A stretch of DNA of 64,000 nucleotides, from NCBI GenBank assembly GCA_021613335.1, contig JAJTWR010000003.1, forward strand, positions 605,001 through 669,000. The letters run 5' to 3'. A program made the translations under genes and the position numbers. Below are positions 12,918 to 64,000 of the stretch, in pieces (position 1 is the first letter of the stretch; each line of letters starts with the position of its first letter). This DNA is from Whitmania pigra (taxonomy: Eukaryota > Annelida > Clitellata > Hirudinida > Haemopidae). The notes under the pieces were generated by a model. That model did not search any database and was not told the DNA's origin. It saw only the letters and a list, made by a program, of their open reading frames with translations.

Positions 12918-12932
12918 TTTGAGACGACCCCT
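12918..12932 (+). promoter_or_regulatory. Array promoter box, copy 1
   Basis: TTTGAGACGACCCCT, about 90 bp before the ATG at 13023. The preceding CCATCAA is shared with the box of copy 23. No clear TATA box follows. Confidence 0.7.
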
Positions 12933-13022
12933 TTCCCTTACGTTTCTGTGTCGTTACGCCGTTGGCTTCCCTTTTAAGAAACAATTAAAAATTTCTTGAC
13001 TACGTTTTGAGAACTTAAAGAG

Positions 13023-15286
13023 ATGACTTTGATCAGAAGTTCTTTCATTTTTTTAACGATTCTTCGGCTAATTACGGTCGGATGTGGTGAGCTGACGATG
13101 TCACAGACAAATTCAGTAACATTTTAAAGGAAATTTAATCAAGCTCTGGATTAAAAGAGTTAATTAAAAAAAAGCATTTAGTAACCTCCTCATGTCTATT
13201 TCTAACAGTTTATTGCCTGTGATTATGATCGATTACGATTGGCACGAAATAAAATGAGATATTTTTTTCAAACTTGATTGTCATTCGCATGAACGAAGTT
13301 ATTACATTTAACAGAAGATGCAGACACCGAGGAATACTGCAACTCTGAAACTTTCCGACCGAGTTGTACTTCAGATGAGATCATTGTGATGGAAGAAGCC
13401 ACATTTGGCAGGAAAAAACTTGGCAGATGTCTCGAGAGCGAAGGCAGCGAGTTGAGTCAGTCCAACATGGCCGACCGGAAGTTTCTGGGTTGCTATGCCG
13501 ACGTAATGCCGACTCTGGAGCCACTGTGCTCTCTGAAGAAGCAATGTGAAGTCAGAGTGGCAGAGATCACAGCAGAAGTACCGTGTTACAAATATTTGAA
13601 GTGCTCGCTTGAAGTTCGATACTCTTGCGTCAGAGGTATGTAAAGGTTAATGCATTTGTAAATTAACAATGTCGGTGTTTATGTAATTAACCTGATCGAA
13701 ATAGTTAATTGATAAATGTATCCGAATGAGTTTAGAAAAAAAATATAATTTTACGAACTTTTTATAAAAGCATGCGACTTGGATTTTTTAACATTTCCAG
13801 TTATTCAAGAAAATCGCCTTTGCAACATCAGATTGGGAGTTAACGTTGAACATCTTCTTGTGTCAAAAGCAACCTCAGCCAACTGTGGCAAACCAGCACA
13901 ACCCTGGATCGTAGAAGCTTTGCCAGGACAAAAAATTACAATAAAGACTGAAGCGTTTCGACACATTAACAACAACAACAACAACAGCAAAACCTTCATT
14001 GGCTTTTCGAGAGCAACTACTGCAACTGCCCATGGTGTGATAATGGAGAAGTTTAGCAAGAAGAAAACATCGGTGATGTCGGAGACAAGGGGACAAAATG
14101 GAGGATCTCAGGAATATTTCATTTCAGATTCGAATTCAATTGAAATTTATTTTCAAGATAAATTGCCGAAGGATCAAATTAGCTTTCTGCTTTCTATTGA
14201 AGGTATGATTATTAAAAGAATGACTTTTCAGAAAAAAATATTATATAATATAATATAATACAAATCAACAATATAACAATCTACTAATATAGGTTTTGAT
14301 TTTTGTTTTCAGCAGAATTATTTGAGTATTAATTTAATTCATGACTTCAGCCACAGGATGTTCTGATCTGATTCCTCCAGCTGATGCCTGGTTGAAGAGA
14401 ACTGAGAACGAGGCCACCATCGGATGTTATTCCACTCGACTCAGATGGCAACTCAAATGTCTTGGACAACGTTGGATCGGCGTCATTGGAAACTGTAGCC
14501 AAGGTTCGTGCCATTTGATATATAAATGCCGGACATATGAAGAGGTCATTTTGACAAACCCGGCAAGCAATATTAATTCATTGCTTGTTTCGTGTGCTTC
14601 ACATCGCCCATTGTATAAACCTTTGACTTTTAAGGTCAGCATTTGATCCTGAGACCAGAAAGAGTTGCCCAAAGATCAGAAGCCATCAGCGACAACCAAA
14701 GTACAATTTATACTTCTTTTGACTTAACTATCTCAAAGTTTCTAATAAAGACTTCCTTCACCATTTCAGCGGTCACCATATTTCTGATCGTGGTGTCAGG
14801 ATTGGTTCTTTGCATGCTCATCACTTGCACTGGAGTGGTATTCCTTAAAAGGTAGATTGGGACAAATTATAAGACGCGGAGTCTAGATTTCTAAGTATTT
14901 TATTAACAAATAATTGCTTTGTTTCACTACAATTTATATTCCATATTTTAATTCTTAATATCATTATTTATTAATATTATCTGCAACGGTTCTACATAAA
15001 TGAGTTACATGAGTGAGTTAAATTTTTCAGATATTACACCGTGGGCAGATCAAAGGCATTGAAACAGATGTCCGTGAACGGCAGAATGGACCGTGGAATG
15101 TCTCTTGAAACAAATGGATCGGTTTTGGGGAACACCACAAGAAAAGAATTTTACGACACCAATGGGAAAGTTTTCTTCCAAGACTCCAGTGATAAGAATG
15201 ATTTGCAGTATAAGGACAACTGCCAGTATTTTGAACTGGATGGATCTCTTCTTGACAAGGATCCAAATTTAAATGTAGCTCAATAA
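13023..15286 (+). CDS. SUEL-CUB-CCP receptor, copy 1
   Basis: Predicted 447-residue type I membrane receptor. Exons: 13023-13086 (signal peptide, MTLIRSSFIFLTILRLITV), 13315-13635 (SUEL lectin-type, 8 Cys), 13801-14202 (CUB-like), 14351-14503 (CCP-like), 14635-14700 (linker), 14770-14851 (TM), 15031-15286 (tail). All junctions are GT-AG and all phases agree. The SUEL part keeps the FGR motif and ends SCVRG. The SUEL exon is longer than in most copies (extra residues before the LGCYAD block, as in copies 7 and 10), and its CLESEGSELSQ and VPCYKYL segments set it apart. The CUB exon carries an Asn-repeat insertion (about 13969-13988) from an AAC microsatellite and lacks the usual third and fourth Cys region, so its fold may be altered. 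The tail reads CQYFELDGSLL. Confidence 0.85.
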
Positions 15287-15575
15287 AGAGCAAGATTTAT
15301 TTTTCTCTAAATGTTGTTGATGCTATTTAGTTAGTTAGGATTTCAACATCGTTGTGAAATGCTTTGTTAATAAATCCCTGTTGTTTTTTTAGAGTTTAAA
15401 TATTAAAAGCAGATAAATCGATAAAAGCTTTTAATGTTCTGCAGGTTATTCATGTGTTAATTAAGTCATAAGATATTAACTCATTATGCTAATAATTATA
15501 TTTTAAATATTTTATTGCACTAAGCAATTTTAAATGTTTCTTTATTATTCCATTATACATTTGAGATGGACTTCA

Positions 15576-15590
15576 TTTTGAGACGACCCC
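15576..15590 (+). promoter_or_regulatory. Array promoter box, copy 2, with TATA box
   Basis: TTTTGAGACGACCCC, then TACGCTC and TATATAAA at 15635-15642. ATG at 15709. Confidence 0.8.
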
Positions 15591-15708: not shown

Positions 15709-17887
15709 ATGATTTATCTGTTCCTGAAAGTTTTCATTTTTCTTACAACCGTTTCCTTAACCACCGCTATCGGTATATTTGTTTGTAGATCTCTGAGGTA
15801 ATATTAAGCATGTAAATGTCAGTTTTATTTAAAACTCCAGACGAATTTTGCCATTCCGAAATATTTCAACCGAGATGTTCTTCAAACGAAATCATCGTAA
15901 TACAAGAGGCATTCTTCGGTAGAAGGACCATGGGAAAGTGTTTGATGGAGGAAGGAAAACCGAATGAAAGTTATCTCAGCGATCCACAGTTCATTGGGTG
16001 CTACGCAGATGTAAGGGATATTATGGAGCCAATTTGTTCAGGAAAAAACAGCTGCGATATGATCGTCTCAAAGATCAAAGCTGTCACAAACTGTCACAAC
16101 TGGTTTAAGCTTCATCTTGAAATTAGTTATGTATGCTTAAAAAGTGAGGCTGTTATTTTTCAATTTAATTTAAAATGTTTTTAAAATGTATAAAGTGTAG
16201 GTAATGCGAATTTCATAGCGTGATTTTTTGTTGCAGTCCATGCGGACAAGTAATTAACAGCAAATAAATTTTGTCAATAATCAACTTATTTAAAACAATT
16301 AATTAAATATTTTTACAACTTATTATCGAAAGGTAAATTCTTCATATGATGCTTCCTTTTAGTCGTACCAGACAACCGCCATTGCACAATCTCGATATCC
16401 AGTGACAAATTACACCTCTCAAACTCCCAAGATTCTTCATCATCTTGTGGCAGCAAAACCAATCCATGGAAGATTGAAGCTCTTGCAGGTCAAAAGATTA
16501 ACATTACTCTTGTCCAATTCCTCGGAGGAGCAGAAAATAAGGCTTATTTTGAGTTAGATTCATCAGATCGAAGGTACCAGTGCTCAGAAAAAGGTCAAAT
16601 CGTGGAGAAAGCAAGTCGAAGAATAGTAAAGATTTGTTTGGAGTCCAAATTTAAAAGGCTTGGAGCGGATTATTACATTTCTGATTCAAATGCAGTGGAA
16701 GTGGTGTTGGAGAAAATGAACATTAAGAATGGAAGCGGATTTGTCCTCAGCTTGGAGGGTAAGAAAATCAATTTATCAGTTAATTTCTTAATTACTTGAT
16801 ACTTATTAACTTATAATATCATATATCTATACCTTCGAATTATTATATTCGAATACTTATTAACTTATAATATCATATATCTATACCTTTGAATATCTAT
16901 TTTTTTATTATTGCTGATTATTGCTGAAGTACTATGGGAGATTTAGAATAACTAATAGAAACCTAATAAACAATTTAGCATTGTTATTTAATAAATTGAA
17001 CAACAATTTAATATTCAACTAATTGTGAAAATTTATATTAGCCACGGGATGTTCTGATCTGATTCCTCCAGCTGATGCCTGGTTGAAGAGAACTGAGAAC
17101 GAGGCCACCATCGGATGTTATTCCACTCGACTCAGATGGCAACTCAAATGTCTTGGACAACGTTGGATCGGCGTCATTGGAAACTGTAGCCAAGGTTCAG
17201 AAATAATATCCAAAGTTACTCAGAAACAATAATTAGGTTTTATGTTTTACTTAGGTCATCAAATGAATTTGCCTGGAGTTGCTACCGTTGGAAAAGTGTC
17301 TAGTTCTCAGGATCAAAGTTGGATAATAATTAATTTTCCATTTCTGCAACATATTGTTAATAGATGTAATAATAAATGTGTAGTTTGGTGATATATTGAC
17401 CTTATTTCAGCTATCACAATTGTAGCAATTGCTGTGGCTGGTTTTGTCGTCTGTTTCTTTATAGTTTGCATTGGAGTTGTCTTTCTGAACAGGTTAGCGA
17501 TTTTCCCGTCATTACGAGAAGCGTAAAATAATTAAAATATTAAAAGTTTAAATTTAAAAGGCACAAAAATATTATTCACAAAAATATTAAAAATTACTTT
17601 TGTTTAATTAAAAAATGAATGCTAAGATGTTATTTTATTTTAGATATTATGCAATCAGCAAGTCAAGAATGATGAAGCAAAGTATTGGAAACCAAAGAAT
17701 GACAATGCAAGCTTCAGTTTATAATGAAGGACCCAATGGAAAATTTCCCCAATTTTCAAACGACACATGGAAAAGCCAAAACGGGAATCTCATAAATTTT
17801 AAAGAAAGTGCTTCAGAAGATCCTGCACACTATTTTGAACTTGATCAAACCCTGGTCAATAAAGACCTAGGCTTAGATAAGGCATAA
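15709..17887 (+). CDS. SUEL-CUB-CCP receptor, copy 2
   Basis: Predicted 434 residues. Exons: 15709-15772 (signal peptide MIYLFLKVFIFLTTVSLTTA), 15841-16143 (SUEL), 16363-16758 (CUB-like), 17042-17194 (CCP), 17255-17317 (linker), 17411-17492 (TM), 17644-17887 (tail). The SUEL exon ends with a phase-1 A|GTGAGG donor. The CUB exon has the standard HC...CG...PWKIE...GQKI layout. The CCP exon matches the array consensus, with CCACGGG at its start. The TM segment has the VVCFFIVCIG pattern. The tail ends in HYFELDQTLVNKD and has a VYNEGPNGK segment shared with copy 3, so copies 2 and 3 are close relatives in their 3' halves. Confidence 0.88.
16800..16893. repeat. Two-copy direct repeat in intron 3 of copy 2
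   Basis: A 40-bp AT-rich unit at 16800-16839 recurs at 16854-16893 with one mismatch. Confidence 0.8.
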
Positions 17888-17960
17888 TTTCATTTAGTTG
17901 AATTTACTTATGTTTAGAGACAGATTTTAATTCCAATTGTGTCGTTGATTTCTTTTTAAC

Positions 17961-18112: not shown

Positions 18113-19989
18113 ATGTTTGCTAGCATATTAATAATCAGTTCCGTTTTTGTGGGATTTATATCAGCAGGTAAATTAATATGTCCAATTATTACATTTTATT
18201 GACATGCCCTTTCATCAGGAATTAAAAACTATTATTTCTAAAATGTAGTTGAATTTTGCAATTGGGAAATATTCCAACCGAGGTGCTCCAACAACGAAAT
18301 CATTGTGATTGAGGAAGCAGTGTTTGGTAGGAGGACGATGGGAAGATGCTTAACAGCCGAAGGAATATCGAACAAAAATTTTCTTGATGATCCTCAGTTT
18401 TTGGGATGCTACGCTGACGTCAAAGGATATTTAGAGCAGCATTGTGCTGGTAAAAAATTGTGCGATGTTACAGTTGCGAAGATCGAAGTTGAGACAAATT
18501 GTCACAAATGGTTGAAATTTCACTTGGAGATTCAATATTCTTGTTTATCAGGTTCGTTTCGCTGTAAATTCGTTGTAAATAGTTTCCGTTCTTAATATCG
18601 CAGAAATATAATCATTTTGTCAGTTGTCCAAGAATCAAGGCATTGTGCAGTGAATCTGGCCGTTGGAAGGCAATACATATCAAGCAAGGAATTTAATAAC
18701 GGTGGTTGTGGATCTAAAACCCAACCATGGATGATAGAATCCACGGTTGGACAGCAAATTAGTATTAAAATGGTTTACATGATTGATTCGAAAAATTCCA
18801 AAGAAACGAAAATTCGATTTATGAAAGTCAATCGTGGATCAAAATATTTTTGTCCAACATTGGGAGAAATAAGTGAAAGGCCGAATAAACATCGAACTGT
18901 AATTTGTTTAGCTGAACAGAATCCTCAATCTAGAGTCAGTGCAGAAAATGAAGCATTCGTTACTGAATCAAATAGCATTGAACTATCTTTATACGATAAC
19001 AACAACAAATCTTTAGGATATGTTTTGGCGTTTGAAGGTAGATTTATATAATCTTTTTATTTTGAAAACTAGATGAACACTAATTTATGAAAATTGTCAA
19101 AATAGCCACAGGATGTTCGGATCTGATTCCTCCAGCTGATGCCTGGTTGAAGAGAACTGAGAACGAGGCCACCATCGGATGTTATTCCACTCGACTCAGA
19201 TGGCAACTCAAATGTCTTGGACAACGCTGGATCGGCGTCATTGGAAACTGTAGCCAAGGAAGATAAAAATTTTTTCCATCATGAATTCAAGCATGAAAAC
19301 AACTTTGTCTTATAATTTTTTAGGACATCAAATGAATTCTCTTAGCGATCAGGCCACCGCACCAGTGATTAGTTCTCAAGATCAAAGTTAGTTGGCAATT
19401 GCTGTATCTTTACTAATATTAATTATATATTATACTACTACAACAGCAATTAATTTTCTTTCTAACCAAGATTGTAACAGCAATAAACTTTTAAATGATA
19501 AAGTTTCCCAATGGTATGAATTTATGTTTCAGCTGTTACTGTGGTGGCGATTGCTGTGGCTGGCTTTGTCGTTTGTTTTTTTATAGTTTGCATTGGAGTC
19601 GTCTTCCTAAACAGGTTTTCTCTATTTTGGAGTTGAACTTATTTTGAAATCGATTAGCGTTATAATTCAAATACTCACAATTATAAAATAAGTATTTATT
19701 TACCGAACATTTTGATATACGATGGTTTCTTATTAAAAACAATTTAATTTTTGCCAGGTATTACGCATTTAGTAAGGCTAGAATGATGAAGCAAAGCATT
19801 GGAAACCAAAGAGCTACAGTTTACAATGAAGCACCTAATGGAAAATGTCCACAGTTTTCAAACGACACGTGGAAGAACCAAAACGGGAATCTCATAAATT
19901 TGAAAGAAAGTATTTCAGAGGATCCTGCGCACTATTTTGAATTGGATCAAACCATGGTCAATAAAGACATATGTTTAGACAAAGCCTAA
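18113..19989 (+). CDS. SUEL-CUB-CCP receptor, copy 3 (splice donor lost after CCP exon)
   Basis: Exons: 18113-18167 (signal peptide), 18249-18551 (SUEL), 18624-19037 (CUB-like), 19106-19258 (CCP), 19324-19386 (linker), 19533-19614 (TM), 19758-19989 (tail). The donor after the CCP exon reads AAG|GAAGATAA, where every other copy has G|GT. One missing T would explain it (GTAAGA becoming GAAGA). Read without splicing, translation ends at the TAA at 19264-19266, giving about 310 residues: signal, SUEL, CUB and CCP but no membrane anchor. The downstream linker, TM and tail exons are intact and in phase, so the change is recent, an assembly error, or a real switch to a secreted product. A GA-AG intron is possible but very rare. 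The tail keeps HYFELDQTMV. Confidence 0.78.
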
Positions 19990-20189: not shown

Positions 20190-22269
20190 ATGTTAAATGT
20201 CGGTTTAATAATAATTTTGGCATTTACGTTTCATGCATCAGCAGGTAAATGGGATGCAGAAAATCTTACTCTAAATTATTACTATATAATCTTACTATAA
20301 ATTATTAAAACAAATTTTAAGTGATCTGTAAATATTCAACTTAATGTTAGTTGAGGTTTGCAATTGGGAAATCTTCCAACCAAGATGCTCCAACAACGAA
20401 ATCATTGTGATTGAAGAGGCAGTGTTCGGTAGGAAGACAATGGGTCGATGTTTGAGCGAAGAAGGCGTTTCAATGGAAAATAATCTCGAAGATCCTAAAT
20501 TTTTGGGGTGCTATGCTGACGTCAAAAGATATTTAGAGCAGCAATGTGCCGGTAAAACGATATGTGATATTGCAGTTGCAAAAATTGGAGTAAACACAAA
20601 ATGTCACAAGTGGTTAAAGTTTCATCTGGAGATTCAATATTCTTGTTTACCAGGTAAAACATAAGATTCTTCGCATAAATTATTGATAAACAATTGAATA
20701 GACCAAATCACTACTTTATAATCATTTTGAAACCTCCGCATTTCTATAATGTAGATATTTCACAGCAAATTGTGAAAAATTTTAAATCACTACTTTATAA
20801 TCATTTTGAAACCTCCGCATTTCTATAATGTAGATATTTCACAGCAAAATGTGAAAAATTTTAACAAGCAATTTTAATTTGTTTGCAGTTGTCAAAGAAT
20901 CGAGGCATTGTTCGGTAAATTTGGCCATAGGCAAACAGTACATTTCAAACAAGGAAATTCAAAGTTGTGGATCCGTAAACCGGCCATGGATAATAGAATC
21001 AACTATTGGACAGCAAATTATTATTAAAATGGTTTACATGGTTGATTCAAAAAATTCAAAAGAATCAAGAATTCGGTTCATGAAAGCCAATCGGGAACCA
21101 GAAAATGTGTGCCCTGTTTTAGGAGAAATAATCGAAAGACAAAATAAACACCGTACTTTGATATGCTTGGTTGAGCATAATTCACACTCTGTTGGAAATG
21201 ACACATTTGTTACTGAATCAAATAGCATCGAAATTTTATTGCGCGACGCTAGAAACACTTCATCCAATTATGTTTTGGCATTCGAAGGTAATTTTAAAAA
21301 GTAAGTCATTTGATAAATGTGATGTGCGATTATAATTAATCAATTATTAGCCACAGGATGTTCGGATTTAATCCCTCCGAGTGACGCCTGGATGAAAAGA
21401 AAGCATGACGAGGCCATCATCGGATGTTATTCCACTCGACTGAGATGGCAACTCAAATGTCTTGGACAACGTTGGGTCGGCGTCATTGGAAACTGTAGCC
21501 AAGGTTACTATCGTACTCTAAGAAAGGATACCACTAAACTAGCCATTACAAAATCTATTATGTCATACCAAGTTTTTGAATATAAACTCAAAATACTCTT
21601 CATTAATAACCTTAGCATGATATTTTCCAGCACACAGATAATTTAATTATATTTTCAGGGTATGTTATGGATGAATTCAAAAGCGCTGCTGTTGAACCTA
21701 CTAACACATCGCATGACCAAAGTACATTATTCTTATAATACGTATTTTCTTTTATTTCTTACATTATTGTATTTCATAACTTCATTCTCCAGGACATTGT
21801 AATCATTTATTTCTTTGTAATCAGTTGTTCCAATAGTCTCCATAGCTGTGGCCGGTTTTGTCGTCTGCTTCTTTATTGTGTGCATTGGGACAGTATTTCT
21901 CAACAGGTTCAGATTAAATTAAAATTAATTAAATAGGTTTTGGTCAATAGATTTATAATTCGACACTCATTTAAGGTTTTTTATTTCTAATGCTCATCAC
22001 CTCAGTCAGTAAAAACCTTTTTTTATTGAAGGTACTACGCCATGAGCAAATCACGAGTGATGAAACAAGCTGGAATACTGAAAATGGGAAGTACTGGCCC
22101 TACCTACAATGACGAATTATTCGGAAAATATGCTCAAGATTCGCTGAAGACCCAAAATGGAAACCTTATGCATTTTAGCGAAAAAGCAAACAACCTGCCA
22201 GATTCAGTTAAATATTATGAACTTGATCAAACACTAATTCGTAATGAATTGCCAGTTCAAGATTCCTAA
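20190..22269 (+). CDS. SUEL-CUB-CCP receptor, copy 4
   Basis: Predicted 430 residues. Exons: 20190-20244 (signal peptide MLNVGLIIILAFTFHASA), 20351-20653 (SUEL), 20889-21287 (CUB-like), 21351-21503 (CCP), 21659-21721 (linker), 21825-21906 (TM), 22032-22269 (tail). The central 132 bp of the SUEL exon is identical to copy 5. The CCP exon is a mosaic: its first half differs from the array consensus (SDAWMKRKHDEAI against ADAWLKRTENEAT), while its second half is essentially identical. Intron 2 contains a 79-bp tandem duplication. The tail ends KYYELDQTLI. Confidence 0.88.
20705..20862. repeat. 79-bp tandem duplication in intron 2 of copy 4
   Basis: The unit 20705-20783 is repeated at 20784-20862 with one visible difference (CAAATTGTG against CAAAATGTG). 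A young local duplication. Confidence 0.9.
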
Positions 22270-28811: not shown

Positions 28812-30571
28812 ATGAAAGCAATTAAAATAATATTCCTGGTATTGTTTATATTATTTCCGGCAAAATTTGATGTTTTGACAGGTTGCACGGATATACTTTT
28901 CAACAAAACAAAATAATTTTAAACACATTTAAGTTGAAACATTTTTAATTCAGATGAATACTGCAATTGGGAAGTTTTTCAACCTCGATGTTCTTCGAAC
29001 GAAATGATTATAATTACTGAAGCTGTCTATGGTCGAAGAAAATTGGGTAGATGTCTAATGGATGAGGGCACTCCTACTGAAACCTTTCTTGAGGACCCAA
29101 AGTTTCTCGGATGTTTTGTTGACGTGAAGCATATTTTGGAACCATTTTGTGCTGGAAAAAGTGAATGTGATGTTACAGTTGCTAAATTAAAAACCGAAAC
29201 ACCATGCCATAAGTTTTACAAACTTTATCTTGAGGTTGGCTACAAATGCATTCAAGGTAAAGTCAAACAAATTATATTGGCTGATGTTTCACTACTTTCA
29301 GTACTTTCATCAGTTTTGTTTAAATTGCATTTCATAAATTTATTTTTAAAGTTGTCCGAGATAACAGACACTGCTCGATTTCGGTGGGAACGGACGTGCA
29401 GCATCTATCAGCACAATCAAATTCTAACGATGGAAAGTGTGGCACGAAAATCCATCCATGGACTGCTGAAGTTCTGACTGGACAACGCATCAAATTCAGT
29501 TTGATGTCCTTCCTCGCCAATTCGAATTACAGCAAACAATTAATTTACTTTCAACAAGGCTCCGCAGAAAAATCAAACGATTGTAATGCAGTTGGGAGCA
29601 TAGTGGACAAAAACAGTAAGAAGAAAATTACGGTGTGCATTAGAAAGGATACTTCTTTGAACAGATCTACTCAGATGATTACAGACTCCAATAGCGCAGA
29701 AATCACACTAAATAGCGGAGTATCAAACTCTGGTCTCATTTTAGCCGTTGAGGGTTAATGTTATTAAGATCATTAATTGTTATACAACTAATTAAAGCTC
29801 TAAACAAAATTTTAATTTAGCCACGGGATGTTCGGATCTGATTCCTCCAGCCGATGCCTGGTTGAAGAGAACTGAGAACGAGGCCACCATTGGATGTTAT
29901 TCCACTCGACTCAGATGGCAACTCAAATGTCTTGGACAACGTTGGATCGGCGTCATTGGAAACTGCAGCCATGGTTCTTACATCTGAATCCTTAAGAATC
30001 TTTAAAATTGTCGCTTAAATTAAAAAAAAATGCATTGAAGGATATTCACAAGTGGAAATTCGAGATCCTGTCATGAAAGAAACTTCAAGCAATACCAATG
30101 ACCAACGTATACTATTAACACTCATTACTTGGAATTGCCAGGAACAACATCCTTTTTTAGGCTAATACTGTGTCATTGTTTTTCTAGTGATTCAAATTGT
30201 CAGCATTGCTATGGCTGGTTTCGTCATCTGCTTCCTAATCATTTGCATTGGAGTAGTGTTTCTTAATAGGTACGTGCAATTTTGTTTTTAATGTATTAAC
30301 AATTAAGTAATAAAAATTCTTTAAATAAAGATATTATGCCATGAACAAACTGCGAAACGTAAAGAATATCGAAAAGCATGACGATGACATGATGACATAT
30401 GTGAGACAGCAGGGATGTCACTTTGATTCCAAACCTCAGATGGCGCTTAATCCATTTAATTCCAATCGGGCGGACAATTTAATCGTCAAGGACATGATAT
30501 CCAAAGAAAATGATGGACAATACTTTGAACTGGAACAAGCACTCGTTAATTCTGGAAGCGCAAACTCATGA
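28812..30571 (+). CDS. SUEL-CUB-CCP receptor, copy 8
   Basis: Predicted 438 residues. Exons: 28812-28881 (signal peptide MKAIKIIFLVLFILFPA), 28954-29256 (SUEL), 29352-29753 (CUB-like), 29821-29973 (CCP, ending NCSHG), 30041-30106 (linker), 30188-30269 (TM), 30331-30571 (tail). The SUEL domain is closest to copy 6. The CCP exon carries a few substitutions (CCACGGG, GCCGATG, ATTGGATG) but otherwise matches the consensus. The tail ends QYFELEQALV, with Glu in place of the usual Asp after Leu, followed by TGA. Confidence 0.87.
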
Positions 30572-53761: not shown

Positions 53762-55936
53762 ATGATAAACTCTATACTTTTGTCTTGCATTTTGTGTGTT
53801 AATCTGAGTTGGATTGTAATATCTAGAGGTAGTATTCACATTAAAGATTTTTTTTGATGTTGCGATCATAACGAGCTGCCCCTCTTTCTAAATAGAACTT
53901 CAAAATGAGGAATACTGTAACTCAGAAGTCTTCACACCGTCTTGCAACAACGGTGAAATAATTGTAATTCTTGAGGCTCATTTTGGTAGGAAACAAATTG
54001 GAAGGTGTCTTCAAGATGATGAAGGTTTGACTGAAGCAAATCTTAAAGATGAAAGATATATAGGATGTTATAATGACATGAAAGCTAATCTTGCTTCAAA
54101 GTGCTCTGGTAAAATTAGCTGCGAAGTTAGAGTTGCTGAGCTTTCTTCTCCAAAGTCTTGTTACAACTACTTAAAGTCGTTTACAGATGCATTAAAAGTG
54201 AGCATTTTGACTAGTTTTTGTAAGATTTGTTGAGTTTGTCATAACTAATGTCTGATGATGGAATAAATACAAAGTTGTATCAGAAGGTTAATGTAGTTTA
54301 TTTAAACTAAATAAACATCTAAGAAACGACTAAGAAACTACGTAATAACTCGACTCGACGAACTACACGACAACGGCAATCAAAACAGTTTAGAACTAGC
54401 TAAGCGTCCCCAGACAACAAAACATAGATACATATATCATATTAAATCACACATAGTTTAAACTCAACAAGATTCGTTGTTTTTATTCTTGCAATATTAA
54501 AAAAATTTGCTAAAACAGAATATCATGTCAAACATTATTTAACCGTTTAAAATAATCAATAATCGTTAATTAATAATAGTACCAAAAATTATAGTTATAA
54601 AAGCAAATCTGACAATATGACATTAAAAAGAAGTAAGGGAATATTAATTTAAACATTTAACTTAGTGGCCCAAAGCGACAAAAACTGTTTCATCAGTCTG
54701 AATGGCGATCATCCTCAATATCTACCTCTTGGATTGCTGGCTTTAAAATCTGATTGTGGATCTCATTTTAAACCGTGGATCGCGGAAACTTTAAAAGGGC
54801 AAAAGATTTTGGCAGTCCTTGAAGATTTTTCAATTCCAGAAAGAAATAGAACAATTCAGAAAACAAATTGGTACCAACTAAGCAATTGCAATGACAAATT
54901 TGGGTTTATTGCAGAGAGAACCGAAAACAGAAACATTACCATTTGTATGAATAAAGGAAATAGCCATTCTCAATTATTTAAATTTCTTTCAACTTCAAAT
55001 ATCATTGATGTCGTTACTAGCAGAGATGCTAAGGATAGAATACTGGCTCTCAAGTTAGAAGGTGCAATTTATACACACAATATATATAGAACAATTGGAG
55101 ATCTGGGAAATTATTAAATTAAATTATGTTAATTTATATTAGTCATGGGATGTTCGGATCTGATTCCTCCAGCTGATGCCTGGTTGAAGAGAACTGAGAA
55201 CGAGGCCACCATCGGATGTTATTCCACTCGACTCAGATGGCAACTGAAATGTCTTGGACAACGTTGGATCGGCGTCATTGGAAACTGCAGCTACGGTAAA
55301 ACAAGTTGCTCTGACCAGTAATTAAGAATTGATAACCATTTATAAACCTATTACTTCGAGCAGGTACCAAGCAGGTTCATTCCTTTGAATCAGAAAGCAA
55401 AGTCCCGCAAGAAAAAAACAGCCACAGTTTGTCTACAAAATTATTTGTTTCTCAACATAATTTTCTAGAATAGCCTTTAATATTGGTCAGTCAAATAATC
55501 ATAAATACCCTTTCTTTAAAAATATAACAATTGAAATTGTTCAATATTATCAAAGCTGTTGCTCTCATCACTATTGGAATGAGTGGAGTTGTACTTTCAC
55601 TTTTAATTGCTTGTGTTGGACTGATCTGCATAAAAAAGTGAGTTGGATACTGTTTTTTTTTATAACCGTAGATCATATTTTTATTTAAATATAGTAAAAA
55701 ATGATACGTTTTTATTTAAAACCAGGTGGCACGTGGTCGGTAAGTCTAAAGAGTTGACTTTAAAAATGGAAAATTCGACAGGTTACAACAATGGTACCGT
55801 AGCACAACATCTGGAAAGAAATACGCTCCTGAAAACAGGTGCTCAGCCATTTCCAAAAAGTGAAATCAGTGTTTCAAAGAATTTTCAGCAATATTATGAA
55901 TTGGAACAAACTTACGACATTAAAAACTCTGTTTGA
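53762..55936 (+). pseudogene. SUEL-CUB-CCP receptor, copy 19, frameshifted
   Basis: Exons: 53762-53828 (signal peptide MINSILLSCILCVNLSW), 53896-54197 (SUEL), 54666-55061 (CUB-like), 55143-55295 (CCP), 55364-55426 (linker), 55556-55637 (TM), 55726-55936 (tail). The SUEL exon is 302 bp where the closest copy (20) has 315: 13 bases are missing near 54180, deleting the last beta strand and shifting the frame. If exon 2 is spliced normally, the next exon is read out of frame and stops within a dozen codons; if read through, translation stops at 54231-54233. Intron 2 is also enlarged to 468 bp. All later exons are intact and phase-consistent, so the inactivation is recent. The tail ends QQYYELEQTYD, and the residue before the TM-proximal basic stretch is Trp where others have Tyr. 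Confidence 0.85.
54235..54480. other. Extra sequence in intron 2 of copy 19, possible insertion
   Basis: Intron 2 is 468 bp here but 78 bp in copy 20 and 143-148 bp in copies 16-18. The block includes a stretch with several CGAC/CGAA words (about 54345-54415), richer in G+C than the introns around it. I could not find terminal repeats or a target-site duplication. It may be a decayed transposon or LTR fragment. Confidence 0.35.
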
Positions 55937-56188: not shown

Positions 56189-57943
56189 ATGGAAAACGTT
56201 ATAGTATTTATTGCAATTACTTTGCTTAGTAAAGCTATCACAGGTATGGCAATACTGTTGTAAATCTACAAAAATATAATCAGCTTAAAAGTTATCAATA
56301 TTTAGGATATCGAGAAGAAGAATTTTGCATTTCTGAAATTTTCAAACCACTTTGTCATCAAGAGGAGATAATAGTAATTTCTGAGGCTCATTTCGGCAGA
56401 CCAAAAATAGGGAGATGTTTGAAGGACGAAGAAGGACTAAATGATGCCAACCTTAAAGATGGAAGACACATAGGTTGCTATGATGATGTCAAATCTTTCT
56501 TGGCATCAAAGTGTTCAGGAAAGTCCAATTGTGAAGTACGGATTGCCGAACTGACAGCCCCGAAATCATGTTACAACTATTTAAAATCTTATCTTACAGT
56601 TACTTACAGATGCATTAAAGGTTTGGTTTTTCAATTTTTTAATTCTGCTTAAATAATGTAAATAAAAAACTAAAATTGATTCGTGTTACTCGTCCTAGTG
56701 GCACTGAATTATCAAGGCTGCAAGATCAAACTCATAGGGTCAACTTCTCAATATTTACCCCTTGGAAAATTGTCACAAACATCCAATTGTGGTCGAGACG
56801 GTAATCCTTGGATAGTTGAAACACTGAAGGGTCAACAAATTCTGGCCAGCCTCGATGACTTTTTAGTCGTAAAAGAAAGCATTGGAAATAAATCGTCTAA
56901 ATTAACGAACAATTGCAAAGTTAAGTTGGGCCACTTAGCAGAAACTGCAAACATCAATATATCCATTTGCTTTTTTGGGGAAAATAACCCCGCAGAAAGA
57001 TTCACGTACTTATCCCAGGCAAATTCAGTGGAAATCACTCGAACTGACAAAGAATTTCATTTTATTGTCGCTCTCACGTTGGAAGGTAATAACATTTATT
57101 ATAAAGGATGATTAAATCAATAGATCATTGTTAATAAAACGCAAGCCACAGGATGTTCTGATCTGATTCCTCCAGCTGATGCCTGGTTGAAGAGAACTGA
57201 GAACGAGGCCACCATCGGATGTTATTCCACTCGACTCAGATGGCAACTCAAATGTCTTGGACAACGTTGGATCGGCGTCATTGGCAACTGTAGCTATGGT
57301 ATAATCTAACTGAGTAATTGTAATATTGATGCATTATTATTGCATTAGACATGCACTGGAATATACATTGTTTATTTAATATTTAAAAGGTCAAAAAGCT
57401 GAAGGTGTCCAAATAGAAAACGTTTCTGCTTCTAAATCGTCGGAGGATGACAATCAAAGTAATATTTAGTAGATAAAATAATATATTCATTAAAGGTTAT
57501 TGATAAATAATACATCGTAATCGTAATAATTGTAGTGATTGCAATTGCTATCATTGCTATGTGTGGTCTGGTCGTTTCAGCACTAATAGCTTGCGTCGGC
57601 ATGGTTTTAGTGAAAAGGTCAGTATTCTTTACTATAAATCTGGTCGTATTGCATTTTTTCTTAACATTTAAAAGTCATTTGTGTCAATTAGTTTAACTCT
57701 ATAGTCTTAGAGAATAGCACAAAACTAAAGTTGTTTTATTTGCTCCGAAGGTATCACTCTCTGAAGAAAGCTGGATTGATGAAAAGAAGACTGGAAAGCA
57801 AAGATGTTAATGAAATCTGCTCCAATTATAACAATGGAACATTGCCTAATTTATTGAATTACGAGACAAAAATGGATAACGCCAAGTATTACGAATTGGA
57901 CAAAACTATTACTGATGCAAAAATATGGGCTGATGGTGTTTGA
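56189..57943 (+). CDS. SUEL-CUB-CCP receptor, copy 20
   Basis: Predicted 417 residues. Exons: 56189-56243 (signal peptide MENVIVFIAITLLSKAIT), 56306-56620 (SUEL, HFGRPKIGRC), 56699-57085 (CUB-like), 57146-57298 (CCP), 57390-57458 (linker), 57536-57617 (TM), 57751-57943 (tail). It is the closest intact relative of pseudogene copy 19 and the last copy to carry the homogenised CCP exon. The CUB first Cys lies in YQGCKI rather than RHC. The tail is the shortest of the array, with NYNNGTLPNL and KYYELDKTIT. Confidence 0.88.
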
Positions 57944-58212: not shown

Positions 58213-60217
58213 ATGATGCTTAAATCTCGCATAATATTAGTTTATATACTATGTGCTTATTTAAATCTCATTATGAGGGCTGAAGGAGAGGAATTGGCAG
58301 ATACAGGTTAGTGATTGAGTTTATTGAAGTCATATTATTTACTTCAACGCTAAGTTCAAAGGTTTTATTCAAACAAAGCAGGTAACGAATATTGTCAGTT
58401 CGAAAACTTCAATCCGAAATGTTCCTCAAACGAAGTTGTTGTGATTGAAAAAGCCATGTTTGGTCGTATGAAAAAGGGCAAATGCATAACCGAGGAAGAA
58501 ATAAAGACATCAGGATCGTTTATTCACGACCCGAAATATTTTGGTTGTTCTGCTGATGTTACGAATGTTTTGCATGAACGATGTTCATTCAAGTCGGAGT
58601 GCATTGTCAAGGTTTCAGATTCAGAATTAAAAAAGACGAATCCTTGCTTGATGGGACTTATACTTCATATGGAAGTTGATTTTAAATGTCTTGAAGGTAT
58701 TCATAAATTTTATAATAACTATTAATTGTAAACGATCAAATCAACCTTAACTAATAACAAATTAACTTTTCTGCATTTTTTATATTAAAATTTAGATTTT
58801 TTTTTTAAATCTGGGTGCTCTCATTCGATTTCACAATATTTTAAATTTAATTTTTGTCATCTCTTTAAACGGATCCACCAATTTCAGTGTTTCAAACAGA
58901 CAATTCACACTGTCACCATCAGGTATCTTCAAAACCAAAGTATTTTATGTCAGAAGCTCTTAAAAATAGAAATTGCGGCATCACTAACAGCCCTTGGTTA
59001 TTGGAAGTTCCAAAAGGTCAAAGACTAACAGCGAAAATTGTGCAAAGTCAGAAAGCGGTTTGCAACCAAGTGGATATCATTCTTCAAGATGGATCAGCAA
59101 GAAAGAATTTTTCTCTCTGTGAAAGTAGCTACCAGATGTCAGAAGGACAAAATAGCAATTTGTTCAAATCTTCCAGCAACATCGTGAAAATGATTGTAAC
59201 ACATCTGGATTCTAATTTGGAAAAGTTTTTGATAAAATTTCAAGGTAGTTCGAATTTTGAATGCAACATTACATTAATTGCATATTACATAATACTTGGT
59301 TCAGCTGATGGCTGTCTAGATATTATACCTCCTGAGGATACATGGTTAAAGAGGACCAATGATGACATTGTGATTGGATGTTATTCATCCAAACAAACCT
59401 GGTATCTTCGATGCGAGAATGGACAATGGACAGGCAGCATTGGAAACTGTTCACAATCCCAAAGTATCAAATTTTTAAATTAATTTAAATTTTTATTAAT
59501 GTATAAACATTAAACGATAATATATTAATAATATTTGTTAAATACATCAATATTAGTTCTCTCAAACGGCAAAGAGACAGAATCAGATGTGAAAATGGAG
59601 AGAAATGACGTTATGCCAAGACATCAACAGAGTAAGTTTTAAATACTTTAATTTTCAAGTATTTAACAGGCTTTTTGTATTTTTAGTTTTGGCAATTGTC
59701 AGCATATTCGGCATGGGTGTCGTGGTATGTTCCCTTATCATTTGTGTTGGAGCGGTTTGTGCTCGAAGGTTTGCAGTTTACTTAAATAATTCAAAAACAT
59801 TAGATATATTTGTATCTTTCTTTCGCTTTGCATTTACTAGAAATATGTGAAGTACCAAATTTAATGATGGAAACAACTGAACGTGGCAATGTTAATCATA
59901 GTCAGTAATGATTGGCTTAAATAGTTTCCTTGCATCGAAAATAGACACATTGCTATCAATCAATAATTAATAACATCTCCGTAACGACTTAAATTCTTGA
60001 CAGATATTCGCTGAAAAAGAAAGGTCAATTGAAACTCTCCATCAATGCTTACGAACAGTCGTATAACCACAGGACCTATCAACCAGATTTTCTTGAAAAA
60101 TTCTCGACCAATCAGATTGATCAAACTCTTTCCAGAAATTCCAATCCCGGTCTTCAGACCGAAAACGACAAAACATATTTTGTATTGGAAGAAGATAAAA
60201 ATGCCGCCAATGAATGA
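58213..60217 (+). CDS. SUEL-CUB-CCP receptor, copy 21 (divergent subgroup)
   Basis: Predicted 431 residues. Exons: 58213-58306 (longer signal/leader), 58382-58696 (SUEL, MFGRMKKGKC), 58888-59244 (CUB-like, 357 bp), 59305-59463 (CCP, 159 bp), 59557-59631 (linker, 75 bp), 59687-59768 (TM), 60004-60217 (tail). GRC of the other copies is GKC. The CCP exon is homologous but not homogenised: DGCLDIIPPEDTWLKR against TGCSDLIPPADAWLKR, ending NCSQSQ. The TM ends CVGAVCARR. The tail has SYNHRTYQP and a changed motif, TYFVLEED, in place of QYFELDQ. This branch therefore shares the plan but not the sequence exchange of copies 1-20. Confidence 0.87.
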
Positions 60218-60732: not shown

Positions 60733-62920
60733 ATGCTTAAATATCATACAACATTAGCTTACATATTATTTGCTTATTCAAATCTTATTATGACGATACA
60801 AGGGGACGATATGGAAGATATAAGTGGAAGAAGTTAGTGATTATCTTTGTTTAAGAAATGTTATCTAAATTATCAGTTTTAATTTAAACAAAGCAGGAAA
60901 CGAATACTGTCAGTTTGAGACTTTTAATCCGAAATGTTCGTCAAGTGAAGTTATAATGATTCAAAAGGCTTTGTTTGGTCGAATGAAGAAAGGCAAATGT
61001 ATAACCGAAGATGAGATAAAAGCCTCAGGGTCGTTCATTCACGATCCCAAATATTTTGGATGTTCGACCGACACCACAGATTTTTTATACAAAAAATGTT
61101 CTTTTAAACAAGAGTGCAGTGTAAAAGTGTCAGATTCTGATCTGAAAAAGGCCAATCCCTGCCTCCCAGGTCTCAATCTTCATTTAGAAGCTGACTTCCA
61201 ATGTCTTGAAGGTATTGAACAATTAAATATGTAATTAAATAAAAAAAAAAATAATTTTATAATAGAGTTCTTGGGCTGAATTGGTGCATGGCCATCGTTT
61301 AGTGAGTAATCATTTTAAAACATAAAGAATGAAATGTTTTTCACTTTCAGTTTTCCATATGGACAATTCAAACTGTCATCTTTCGGTTTCTTCAAAACCG
61401 AAGTATTTTTTAACTAAGACTCTTACTAATAAAAAATGGGGTTCTGTAAATAACCCTTGCATATTCGAAGCACAGAAAGGTCAAAGGTTAAAAACGGAAA
61501 TTATGGAGAGCCAGAAAGCCAGTTGCAATTACGTAGACATTATTCTTCACGATGATTCAACTAGAAAGAATTTTTCTCTATGTGAAAATAGTTATCAGAT
61601 GCCAGAAGGATCAAAAAGCAATTCATTTATATCCTCCAGCAATGTCGTGAAAATGTTTATAAAACATTTGGATTCTGATTTGGAAATGATTTTGATAAAA
61701 TTTCAAGGTTATTCGAATTTGATAATTTATTTACTTTTAACGTCCGTTTAAATTTAGTAAGTTAATACATTCGTTTTTATACAATATATTATATTATATA
61801 TATATCTTATACATAATCTTATATAATCTGCCTACCTGGGGTAGGGGCGCTATAGAAATGGTAGGTCGATTAAGTGCCTTCACATCCTGTTGGGATACGT
61901 AAGGCACTCAAAAAATTGGCTAAATAAATAAAAAAATAAAAAAATATATATAATATATAATTTATATTATTATATTTTTATAATACATTATAAGTTAATT
62001 ATTAGTCGAATATACAAACGTAAAATAGGATTATGTGCGTTTAGCTGATGGATGCCTGGACATAATACCTCCTGAGGACACATGGTTAAAAAGAACCAAT
62101 GATGACATTGTGATCGGATGTTATTCATCCAAACAAACCTGGTATCTTCGATGCGAGAATAGTCAATGGACGGGCAGCATTGGAAACTGTTCTCAGTCAC
62201 AAAGTTTAAAATTTATACAGACATTTTATATAATATTTATATTATTGCATAAAATCAAGTAATATATTCTGTTATTACCAATTTAAGATCAATTAAATGG
62301 CAAAGAAAGGGAATCGGATGTGAAAATTGACAAAAAGGACGTTATGCCAAGACATCAACAAAGTAAGTTTTTTATTTTAAATTGTAAGATTTTGATAAAC
62401 TTTGAATACATTTGCAGTTTTAGCAATCGTCAGCATATTTGGCATGGGTGTCGTGATATGTTCCCTTATCATTTGCGTTGGAGCGGTTTGTGCTCGAAGG
62501 TTTGCATTTATTTTAATGGCCAAGTTCATTAGAGTTAGTGCCATTTTTAATGAATTTAATGAATGAAGCAATTGAGGCTGTCAATGTTAATTTGACTTTA
62601 GTGGTTCAACCATATACTTTATTAAAAGTGCAGGAAATTAATCGCATTGCTATTAATCAAGCAATTGTCTTTATGACATCTTCATGCCGATATATTTTTG
62701 TGACAGATATTCGCTGAAAAAGAAAAGTCAGTTGAAACTCTCCATCAATGCTTACGAACAGTCGTACAACCACAGGACCTATCAACCAGATTTTCTTGAA
62801 AAGTTCTCGACCAATCAGATTGATCAAACTCTTTCCAGAAATTCCAATCCCGGTCTTCAGACCGAAAATGACAAAACATATTTTGTATTGGAAGAAGATA
62901 AAAATGCCGCCAATGAATGA
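60733..62920 (+). CDS. SUEL-CUB-CCP receptor, copy 22 (divergent subgroup, Cys/Trp exchange in CUB)
   Basis: Predicted 433 residues. Exons: 60733-60832 (leader), 60897-61211 (SUEL), 61351-61707 (CUB-like), 62045-62203 (CCP, 159 bp), 62288-62362 (linker), 62418-62499 (TM), 62707-62920 (tail). In the CUB exon the conserved Cys and Trp have exchanged places: copy 21 reads RNCGITNSPWLLE, copy 22 reads KKWGSVNNPCIFE, so a disulfide could still form in a shifted position. Intron 3 holds AT-rich DNA and a dispersed repeat tail. The tail exon and the 3' flank are almost identical to copy 21 (only scattered differences), while the lectin and CUB parts differ substantially. Confidence 0.86.
61826..61950 (+). 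repeat. Dispersed repeat tail (LINE/SINE 3' end-like), second copy
   Basis: Contains GGTAGGTCGATTAAGTGCC, CTTCACATCCTG and AAGGCACTCAAAAAAT, matching the block at 1505-1595, and ends in TAAATAAATA-type sequence. It lies in intron 3 of copy 22. A non-LTR element 3' end is likely; the family is unknown. Confidence 0.5.
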
Positions 62921-63118
62921 TGGATCAAAGAATTATCATAACTGATTGTCCTACATTACTCGTTGCAGTAATTACAGTTCTTGACGTACATGTTTTTATT
63001 GATTTAAATTAACGTTTTGTAATTGTACAATAAATTTAATTATAATTAATTGTGTGATGCTTGTTTATTGAAACAATTATAACAACATTTGCAAGAGATG
63101 CGAATGCGTTTCCATCAA

Positions 63119-63133
63119 TTTGAGATGACCCCC
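63119..63133 (+). promoter_or_regulatory. Array promoter box, copy 23, with TATA boxes
   Basis: TTTGAGATGACCCCC preceded by CCATCAA as in copy 1. Two TATA candidates follow: TATAAAT at 63170-63176 and TATAAAAA near 63185. ATG at 63261. Confidence 0.75.
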
Positions 63134-63260
63134 GAAGTTTTTAATAGTCATGATTCAAAATATTCACGGTATAAATGCTGGTGATATAAAAAGGGTTGAT
63201 ATACTGATCTTCTCTCATGAAACACTTTCCTGAGGTTCCATAACTTTTTCGTTTATAGAA

Positions 63261-64000
63261 ATGGTTCACGTATTGCTTCGAATTCATTTTGTCTTTCTGG
63301 TTATTGTTAAGTTTTTGCTTTGCGATGTGAACATTATTGAAGGAAATGAGAAAAACGAAATTGGATTAAGAGGTTGGTTTACTTGAATATGTCAAGGTGC
63401 ATAATTCAAGAATGTTTGATCATTGAATAACATTTCTATCTAATTTAAAATATTTGAAACCGTGTTTCATTTTTACAATTCAAGAAGACGAGTACTGCCA
63501 GTTCGACACGTTCAGTCCTAAATGTTCTTCAAGTGAAGTCATACTCATAGAGACAGCGTTGTATGGTCGCATGAAAAAAGGAAAGTGTATATCCGAAGAA
63601 GAGATCAAAGCATCTGGTTCCCTGGTTCACGATCCAAAATTCTTTGGTTGCTCCGTCGACGTAACTGACAAGTTGCACAATAAATGTTCTTTTAAGAAAG
63701 AATGCAGTGTTAAAATATATGATCCTGAACTGAAAGGAATGAATCCTTGTTTACCCACACTAAATCTTCATCTGGAGGCGAAATACGATTGTCTGGCGGG
63801 TAAAACCATTTGATGTTATTAATAAAGTTATTTTGAACAGCACAACATTATTTGATAATTTTTGAATAATTAATAGTTTGTAATGGCAAGAATTTTTAGA
63901 ATAGCTGATTTCTTATCAGAAAACCTATAAAAAAATTGTTTTAACTTTTAAGCCGATGTTTACTTGAATAAGGCTAGCAGGGCGTAAAGTCCCATTGTTA
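63261..64000 (+). CDS. SUEL-CUB-CCP receptor, copy 23, 5' part only (cut by window edge)
   Basis: Exons seen: 63261-63372 (long leader, MVHVLLRIHFVFLVIVKFLL, then a charged segment) and 63485-63799 (SUEL, LYGRMKKGKCISEEEIKASG). The phase-1 donor G|GTAAAA at 63799 and the remaining 200 bp of intron agree with the family plan. It belongs with copies 21 and 22. The CUB, CCP, linker, TM and tail exons should lie to the right of the window. Confidence 0.85.

What the first reader, a model, noticed from the sequence alone, without database searches (positions are those of the whole stretch)
12918..64000. Tandem array of 23 SUEL-CUB-CCP-TM receptor genes, all on one strand
Fifty kilobases hold 23 head-to-tail copies of one seven-exon gene and nothing else except small repeats. 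Seen directly: exon order, phases (1-1-1-1-1-2) and in-frame exon sums for every complete copy except copy 19. SUEL (rhamnose-binding lectin) and CUB domains are known recognition modules, but I do not know a described receptor family with this SUEL-CUB-CCP-TM-tyrosine tail layout in a large tandem cluster. Variable ectodomains on a constant stalk and tail is the design expected of a recognition or self/non-self system; that role is inference.
Basis: partly seen in the sequence, partly recalled or inferred. Interest (0 to 1): 0.92.

Follow-up and report, generated by a model that had tools for sequence, protein, structure and literature searches.

The report
Leech-like receptor array sharing one exon
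A worm chromosome carries a long row of cell-surface receptor genes whose outer and inner parts have drifted far apart while one short middle exon is kept almost identical in most of them and marks the place where receptor halves appear to have been swapped.

Summary
The window has 23 SUEL exons, all on the + strand. Copies 1-22 model as complete seven-exon genes (GT at 131 of 132 donors, AG at 132 of 132 acceptors); copy 23 runs off the end. The array goes on to within 8 kb of the end of contig C6 and onto C94. SUEL is clear by profile; CUB and CCP miss Pfam's cut-offs but predicted folds support them. Markers suggest a leech-like annelid.

"Constant stalk and tail" is wrong in an interesting way: only exon 4 (153 bp, CCP) is constant. 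Its median synonymous difference is 0.118, against 0.68-0.81 in the other exons, and likeness stops at its splice sites. Trees of 5' and 3' exons conflict far more across exon 4 than within halves. Best reading: gene conversion confined to one exon, which is also the hinge where ectodomains and tails were exchanged. Recognition is inference: no expression data, no positive selection seen, no homologue or matching paper found.

The parts
13023..15286 (+). copy 1, 7 exons, 447 aa
   Evidence: gene model
15709..17887 (+). copy 2, 7 exons, 450 aa (linker exon 5 uncertain)
18113..19989 (+). copy 3, 7 exons; bases after exon 4 are GA, not GT
20190..22269 (+). copy 4, 430 aa; exon 4 looks like a mosaic (5' part diverged, 3' part like the rest)
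22442..24335 (+). copy 5, 431 aa (TM exon modelled 73 nt, boundary uncertain)
24577..26500 (+). copy 6, 439-440 aa depending on the exon 5 donor, the hand-built model
26726..28588 (+). copy 7, 452 aa
28812..30571 (+). copy 8, 438 aa
30823..32544 (+). copy 9, 427 aa
32907..34714 (+). copy 10, 425 aa (exon 1 uncertain)
34983..36989 (+). copy 11, 428 aa; 3' half nearly that of copies 12 and 13, 5' half unlike (linker exon 5 uncertain)
37218..39348 (+). copy 12, 418 aa
39565..41759 (+). copy 13, 425 aa; 5' half most like copy 14, 3' half most like copy 11
41990..43999 (+). copy 14, 427 aa
44171..46165 (+). copy 15, 422 aa (linker exon 5 uncertain)
46532..48474 (+). copy 16, 442 aa
48696..51289 (+). 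copy 17, 429 aa; 5' half most like copy 18, 3' half most like copy 16
51532..53443 (+). copy 18, 431 aa
53762..55936 (+). copy 19; SUEL exon C-terminus disrupted
56189..57943 (+). copy 20, 417 aa, last copy with type-A exon 4 on C6
58216..60217 (+). copy 21, 430 aa, first copy with type-B exon 4
60733..62920 (+). copy 22, 433 aa, type-B exon 4
63261..64000 (+). copy 23, exons 1-2 only inside the window (gene continues to about 65747 in the same numbering)
14351..14503 (+). exon 4 (CCP), copy 1, type A
17042..17194 (+). exon 4, copy 2, type A
19106..19258 (+). exon 4, copy 3, type A (no GT after it)
21351..21503 (+). exon 4, copy 4, mosaic
23503..23655 (+). exon 4, copy 5, type A
25679..25831 (+). 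exon 4, copy 6, type A; AlphaFold model m721f9455ee67
27757..27909 (+). exon 4, copy 7, type A
29821..29973 (+). exon 4, copy 8, type A
31780..31932 (+). exon 4, copy 9, type A
34004..34156 (+). exon 4, copy 10, type A
35961..36113 (+). exon 4, copy 11, identical to the type-A majority sequence
38366..38518 (+). exon 4, copy 12, type A
40840..40992 (+). exon 4, copy 13, type A
43188..43340 (+). exon 4, copy 14, type A
45232..45384 (+). exon 4, copy 15, type A
47665..47817 (+). exon 4, copy 16, type A
49831..49983 (+). exon 4, copy 17, type A
52665..52817 (+). exon 4, copy 18, type A
55143..55295 (+). exon 4, copy 19, type A
57146..57298 (+). exon 4, copy 20, type A
59305..59463 (+). exon 4, copy 21, type B
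62045..62203 (+). exon 4, copy 22, type B
29352..29753 (+). exon 3 (CUB) of copy 8; AlphaFold model mb09b23a64118

Best explanation
This is a large tandem array of single-pass type I receptor genes in a leech-like annelid: signal peptide, SUEL lectin domain, CUB, CCP, short linker, one TM helix, and a tail of about 63-85 aa with one conserved C-terminal tyrosine motif. Each copy is modelled as its own gene with its own signal-peptide exon. SHOWN: the copies are old (synonymously saturated) everywhere except exon 4, the CCP exon, which is nearly identical in copies 1-20 (copy 4 only in its last part) and in 7 copies on contig C94. The similarity stops at the exon's splice sites, and 5' and 3' halves of some neighbouring genes have different closest relatives, with the switch at exon 4. 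INFERRED: exon 4 is homogenised by gene conversion among paralogues. Because it is the only stretch still alike between most copies, it is also where conversion and crossover can exchange SUEL-CUB ectodomains against TM-tail halves. So new ectodomain-tail pairings arise in the germ line, while a shared CCP next to the membrane is kept constant, presumably because it docks to a common partner or to itself. INFERRED, weaker: the SUEL-CUB tip reads glycans or glycoproteins on other cells or microbes, and the tail's YFEL/YFVL motif signals through SH2 proteins or drives endocytosis.
For: Architecture: SUEL; CUB fold; CCP fold; 22 full models; 23 of 23 tails with Y[FY]xL[DE]. Homogenised exon: median pS 0.118 in exon 4 against 0.682, 0.809, 0.775, 0.748, 0.751 and 0.787 in exons 1, 2, 3, 5, 6, 7 (18 of 20 copies for exons 2 and 4, 20 of 20 for the others). 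Column identity 0.88-1.00 inside the exon, 0.30-0.34 outside, 0.44 and 0.49 in the two 15-base bins that hold the splice signals. Gapped 56-57-base flanks: of 190 pairs, only 17/18 and 13/14 in intron 3 and only 11/13, 12/13 and 11/12 in intron 4 exceed the best shuffled pair, and no pair is in both lists. Mosaic within the exon: copy 4 has 20 differences from the majority sequence, 15 of them in the first 67 of 153 nt; binomial p 0.033 for the first 80 nt, chosen after seeing the data. Same type-A exon across contigs: pS 0.118 between 7 C94 and 17 C6 copies while their CUB exons are at 0.78; no dependence on array distance (0.108, 0.107, 0.119, 0.103). Half swaps: 13 is closest to 14 upstream of exon 4 and to 11 downstream; 17 to 18 upstream and 16 downstream. 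Trees: lnL cost of swapping 5' and 3' trees is 280 and 384 (19 type-A copies), against 49/21 inside the 5' half and 44/41 inside the 3' half; with 22 copies 306 and 395. GC3 is higher in exon 4 (0.450) than in exons 2, 3 and 7 (0.357, 0.355, 0.374), as biased conversion would give.
Against: Type-B copies are not homogenised: exon-4 pS is 0.65 among 8 of them, and for copies 21/22 exon 4 dS (0.63) exceeds that of exons 6+7 (0.14), so this is not a rule for the whole family. Trees of exons inside each half also conflict (pAU 0.0002-0.019), and pairwise distance correlations do not part the halves cleanly (exons 2-3 0.40, 6-7 0.51, but 2-6 0.36 and 3-6 0.30), so not every exchange is at exon 4. 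Copies 12 and 13 are alike on both sides overall. The GC3 argument is weak: exon 6 (0.425) and type-B exon 4 (0.429) are also high. Short-read polishing could have made similar exons look more alike than they are; I could not check reads. dN/dS is below 1 in the 11 of 14 SUEL and CUB comparisons that could be computed. There is no expression or ligand evidence.
Confidence: 0.75

Rival explanations
1. Exon 4 is kept identical by selection on its nucleotides (an RNA element, splicing enhancer or protein plus codon constraint), with no gene conversion; halves differ only through ordinary duplication and loss.
For: Exon 4 has the lowest pN and highest protein identity; CCP cysteines and two tryptophan-rich stretches are invariant in 35 of 35 sequences, type B included, copy 3 left out.
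Against: Type-B exon 4, the same domain at the same place, is free at synonymous sites (pS 0.65), so the nucleotide constraint would have to be specific to type A. Copy 4 looks like a mosaic, and intron 3 and intron 4 similarity between neighbours switches at exon 4. Tree conflict is largest there.
Confidence: 0.1
2. A single recent wave: one CCP exon spread through the already diverged array (by conversion) in a short time and is now drifting apart again, so there is no continuing homogenisation and no functional need for it.
For: Differences from the majority sequence are few, 0-8 per copy apart from copy 4 with 20; no distance dependence.
Against: Does not predict the half swaps around exon 4, but these could be independent of it.
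Confidence: 0.2
3. The array serves neural or developmental cell identity (as clustered protocadherins do), not defence.
For: SUEL is part of the ectodomain of latrophilins; the evolutionary pattern, diverse distal ectodomains with a homogenised membrane-proximal part in a tandem cluster, is that reported for fugu protocadherins (passages); low dN/dS fits an identity code as well as or better than an arms race.
Against: No expression data either way; protocadherins of a cluster share constant exons (recalled), these genes do not.
Confidence: 0.3
4. Assembly or polishing artefact: exon 4 copies were made alike by short-read polishing, or the array is inflated.
For: Stretches of C6, C191 and C94 overlap with 93.6-99.85% identity and differ in copy number; short repeats are a known risk in polishing (recalled).
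Against: Other exons and most introns are far apart, so reads should anchor uniquely; type A and type B stay distinct where interspersed on C94.
Confidence: 0.05

Closest known systems
Clustered protocadherins of teleosts (regional gene conversion; PMC1852091, passages read)
   Same: Tandem cluster of single-pass surface proteins, diverged distal ectodomains, membrane-proximal part near-identical among tandem paralogues by regional gene conversion, inferred there from nucleotide identity and raised GC3.
   Different: Unrelated domains (cadherin against SUEL-CUB-CCP); the homogenised piece there is the 3' region of the variable exons, here a single internal 153-bp exon flanked by unrelated introns; here every gene is modelled with its own TM and tail, and tails are exchanged.
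TLR1/TLR6 gene conversion (PMC2077338, abstract read)
   Same: Tandem recognition receptors whose N-terminal part diverges while another part is held alike by conversion.
   Different: Two genes, a 300-aa region including TM and most of TIR; here more than 20 genes and one extracellular exon.
SUEL/rhamnose-binding lectins and latrophilins (PDB hits 5h4s, 2zx0, 8suf, 2jx9)
   Same: SUEL domain with the [YF]GR motif (23 of 23) and eight cysteines (21 of 23; copy 1 has nine, copy 19 seven).
   Different: No DPC motif (0 of 23); one SUEL joined to CUB, CCP and one TM helix; no 7TM part in the models.
CUB-CCP membrane proteins (CSMD, SEZ6; abstracts in the search listing only)
   Same: CUB next to CCP on a membrane protein.
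   Different: Those carry several CUB and CCP domains; the abstracts name no SUEL.
SUEL-bearing membrane proteins of bdelloid rotifers (PMC8878817, passages read)
   Same: SUEL in membrane-associated proteins of a spiralian animal.
   Different: Described there only as large multidomain proteins; no CUB-CCP layout or array in the passages shown (12 of 18 places).

Membership tests
SUEL / rhamnose-binding lectin | Pfam PF02140 over the curated cut-off | tested here: met
   21 of 23 window exons over the cut-off (3 of them only with neighbours), the other 2 at 29.9 and 29.7 bits against 31.4
SUEL / rhamnose-binding lectin | YGR and DPC motifs linked to sugar contact (motif names and role recalled) | tested here: inconclusive
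   [YF]GR 23 of 23, DPC 0 of 23; rhamnose binding cannot be assumed
CUB domain | Pfam PF00431 match | tested here: not met
   3 of 35 members at E <= 1, best E 0.02; one member instead matched Arylsulfotrans (PF05935) at E 1.7e-6, unexplained; the profile found no PDB chain. 35 of 36 models scanned, copy 24 left out
CUB domain | CUB fold and four cysteines | tested here: met
CCP / Sushi domain | Pfam PF00084 match | tested here: not met
   0 of 35 members (copy 3 left out); the 42 genomic Sushi hits do not include these exons; no PDB chain by profile
CCP / Sushi domain | CCP fold and four-Cys/Trp pattern | tested here: met
ITIM-bearing inhibitory receptors | [ILVS]xYxx[ILV] in the tail | tested here: not met
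   1 of 23 tails; all 23 have Y[FY]xL[DE]
Clustered protocadherins | cadherin repeats and shared constant exons (recalled) | tested here: not met
   Domains are SUEL, CUB, CCP, and each of 22 copies is modelled with its own seven exons
Families evolving by region-restricted gene conversion | low synonymous divergence confined to one region among otherwise diverged paralogues | tested here: met
   type-A copies; not so in type B
Rearranging immune receptors | somatic recombination in individual cells | not testable with these tools
   one assembly, no reads

The most novel reading that the evidence does not exclude
Exon 4 is a dedicated recombination hinge: selection keeps this one exon alike across the array because it lets the germ line (or, more boldly, somatic cells) re-pair SUEL-CUB recognition heads with different signalling tails at high rate, a switch-region-like device built from a 153-bp coding exon.
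Probability: 0.15. Interest if true: 0.88.

Novelty: new variant of a known kind. Interest (0 to 1): 0.66.

Why it matters
I saw no described receptor repertoire of this kind in leeches or other annelids among the papers that my searches listed. If the reading holds, the array is a clean natural experiment: one 153-bp exon held alike in more than 20 genes while everything around it has saturated, with head-tail swaps at that exon. That makes it possible to measure the minimum length and the rate of conversion in an animal germ line, and to ask directly whether a homogenised exon is a by-product of a shared binding function or is kept because it allows recombination. It would also point to candidate self/non-self or neuronal identity receptors in a group used for neurobiology and known for bacterial symbionts (abstracts in the listing).

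Tried and rejected
Homologues: a full-length search with copy 6 (3029 candidates, none at E <= 10) and an alignment of six copies (7476 candidates, none at E <= 0.01) found nothing; the database may hold few annelids, so this is not evidence of a lineage-specific origin.

Pfam and PDB sequence profiles for the CUB-like and CCP-like exons gave no support, and one CUB-like exon of 35 matched an unrelated family at E 1.7e-6, which I did not follow. Foldseek alone showed no CCP entry in its top 50 for exon 4; only the second look did.

Organism: COX1 was tried as a marker, but the four hits lie in open frames of 542-715 aa, which I take as bacterial without having examined the contigs. Annelid linker domains (5 hits, 4 over the cut-off) and 58 antistasin matches were used instead. 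Both ring in 0 of 14 control genomes, but the eight of these named are prokaryotes, so the controls say nothing about other animals.

Positive selection: looked for by pairwise dN/dS in seven pairs, not seen. A site test was not run.

The idea that the tail is a classical ITIM was rejected (1 of 23). Conversion templated by spliced cDNA was considered because identity stops at the splice sites; it is not favoured because homogeneity already falls off inside the exon edges (0.88-0.89). A polypyrimidine pattern scan gave only chance matches.

Gene models: early versions misplaced some exons and were corrected. One search used exon 1 of copies 7 and 10 and exon 6 of copies 12 and 13 before correction; the exon-4 contrast does not rest on them. 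Dropped rows: copies 3 and 19 from exons 2 and 4, and copies 21 and 22 from exon 7 there; copy 19 from the trees; copies 3, 4 and 19 from the C6 set; copy 24 from the CUB alignment A1 (35 of 36), copy 3 from the exon-4 alignment A2 (35 of 36), copies 19 and 32-36 from the SUEL alignment A3 (29 of 35). In one search I entered 67 of the 82 SUEL hits that one search lists outside C6, C94 and C191; the 15 left out are on C26, C376, C344 and C202, where one search lists no CCP-like hit. One search scored 150 of 172 candidates, so its counts are lower bounds.
Full report
What is there. The window is bases 605,001-669,000 of contig C6 in a 178-Mb genome of 381 contigs. From 13,023 on it is filled with one gene repeated head to tail on the + strand. 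I built a model by hand for copy 6 and extended it to the other copies with a script that demands frame, phase and splice sites. Copies 1-22 come out complete: seven exons, phases 1-1-1-1-1-2, no internal stop, GT at 131 of 132 donors, AG at 132 of 132 acceptors, introns of median 93.5 bp and 171-515 bp between stop and next ATG. Copy 3 lacks a GT after exon 4, and copy 19 has a disrupted SUEL exon. These are models from sequence alone; some boundaries of exons 1, 5 and 6 (copies 2, 5, 10, 11, 15) are uncertain, and no transcript was available.

How far it goes. On C6 a similarity scan finds 37 SUEL, 37 CUB-like and 37 CCP-like exons, the last at 711.9 kb of 719.5 kb. C94 carries 18 more SUEL hits, three of them in a part that overlaps C6 at 93.6-99.6%; C191 overlaps C6 at up to 99.85% but lacks about 22 kb that C6 has, which looks like copy-number difference between haplotypes or an assembly matter. 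Outside C6, C94 and C191, 53 CCP-like exons were listed, and 32 have a SUEL exon within 12 kb upstream on the same strand, against 0.12 expected by chance; these 32 include small groups on C68, C93 and C192 that may be partly duplicates. Of three such places read, L034 and L036 show SUEL, CUB and CCP in order, and L036, by weak similarity and by eye, a TM stretch and a tyrosine tail; L035 shows SUEL and CCP but no clear CUB. Of four further 3.2-kb loci scanned, L002, L004 and L008 showed SUEL but no CCP within their length and L007 showed neither on the strand read. So the family is spread over the genome and this array is its densest part among those seen.

The organism is probably a leech or a near relative: annelid linker domains (5 hits, 4 over the cut-off) and 58 antistasin matches, with a genome of the size reported for Hirudo medicinalis (assembly 78.67% of 230 Mb; passages of PMC7303139). 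The control genomes that are named are prokaryotes, so this is an inference.

The main result. In copies 1-20, exon 4 has median pS 0.118 and pN 0.017, while the six other exons have pS 0.68-0.81. The similarity begins and ends at the splice sites: mean column identity is 0.88-1.00 inside the exon and 0.30-0.34 beyond the splice signals on either side. With gaps allowed, the 56-57 bases of flanking intron are hardly more alike than shuffled ones (medians 0.45 against 0.41, and 0.32 against 0.27). Of 190 pairs, two in intron 3 (17/18, 13/14) and three in intron 4 (11/13, 12/13, 11/12) exceed the best shuffled pair, and no pair is in both lists. Seven copies on C94 carry the same exon (pS 0.118 to 17 C6 copies) although their CUB exons are at 0.78, and they lie among type-B copies that keep their own exon 4; within C6 there is no dependence on distance. 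Copy 4's exon 4 is diverged in its first part and like the rest in its last part (20 differences, 15 in the first 67 nt; p 0.033 in a test on the first 80 nt chosen after seeing the data).

Exchange at exon 4. Copy 13 is 0.92-0.93 identical to copy 14 in exons 2 and 3 and 0.48-0.67 in exons 5-7; to copy 11 it is 0.59 and 0.35 before and 0.94-0.98 after; to copy 12 it is fairly alike on both sides. Copy 17 is 0.93-0.96 identical to 18 in exons 2 and 3 and 0.67-0.83 in exons 5-7; to 16 it is 0.71-0.79 before and 0.85-0.99 after. Swapping trees between halves costs 280 and 384 lnL units, against 49/21 for exon 2 against 3 and 44/41 for exons 5+6 against 7 (19 type-A copies). Those inner conflicts are also nominally significant, and distance correlations between exons of different halves reach 0.36 against 0.40 and 0.51 within halves, so exchange is concentrated at exon 4 and not exclusive to it.

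Limits of the result. Type-B copies are not homogenised in this way (pS 0.65 among 8). Ectodomain dN/dS is 0.06-0.27 in the 11 of 14 comparisons that could be computed, so the variety is age plus constraint, with no sign of positive selection at this resolution. GC3 is raised in exon 4 (0.450), but also in exon 6 (0.425) and in type-B exon 4 (0.429).

What it works like. The evolutionary mode is that of fugu protocadherin clusters, where divergent ectodomains sit on a region homogenised by conversion (passages of PMC1852091), and of TLR1/TLR6 (abstract of PMC2077338). It is not a member of either family. What is different is the scale and sharpness: one small internal exon, unrelated introns on both sides, and head-tail swaps at that exon. 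I saw no paper describing this architecture in the listings (only the top rows of each were shown); the library lacks most subscription journals and preprints. Olavius algarvensis transcripts include 7 SUEL lectins (passages of PMC5117596). [quoted passage not shown] SUEL does not occur in the main text of the Osedax paper (PMC10192322).

Function. The likeliest reading is a recognition receptor family whose heads and tails can be re-paired in the germ line through a shared CCP hinge. Defence and neural identity are both open; I hold defence or symbiont recognition slightly more likely, on the lectin domain and the array size alone.

Noticed in passing
2636-6019 +: Large ORF ending in a rhodopsin-family GPCR segment (7tm_1, E 1.7e-17) upstream of the array; by eye muscarinic-like (recalled).
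   Followed up: partly
20705-20864: A 79-bp unit duplicated in tandem at 98% between the SUEL and CUB exons of copy 4.
   Followed up: no
50152-50902: Intron 5 of copy 17 is 751 bp against a median of 93.5 bp, perhaps an insertion.
   Followed up: no
G000 C6:676790-685436 and C6:699851-708479; C191:1-34282: 98% identical block inside C6, and C191 matches C6 at up to 99.85% but skips about 22 kb: copy-number difference between haplotypes or assembly error.
   Followed up: partly
G000 C115, C49, C360, C47 (L030-L033): COX1 matches in open frames of 542-715 aa, taken as bacterial contigs in the assembly (symbionts or contaminants); contigs not examined; no mitochondrial COX1 among the four matches.
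   Followed up: no
G000 C26:187958-210348 and C376:14184-36574: Two contigs with the same series of SUEL hits, many covering only half the domain, some with stops: another SUEL cluster, perhaps a haplotype pair.
   Followed up: no
G000 C6:711882 (L013): SUEL fragment without CUB or CCP, with a similar fragment on C191 (17105) and on C94 (6308 in reverse): perhaps a shared pseudogene.
   Followed up: partly
exon 4, last 8 bases, copies 1-20: The 3' edge of exon 4 splits the array: copies 1-10 end in SQ, SH or SR, copies 11-20 in SY, as if conversion tracts seldom reach the edge.
   Followed up: partly
one of the 35 CUB-like exons of alignment A1: Pfam Arylsulfotrans (PF05935) at E 1.7e-6 in one member; unexplained.
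   Followed up: no
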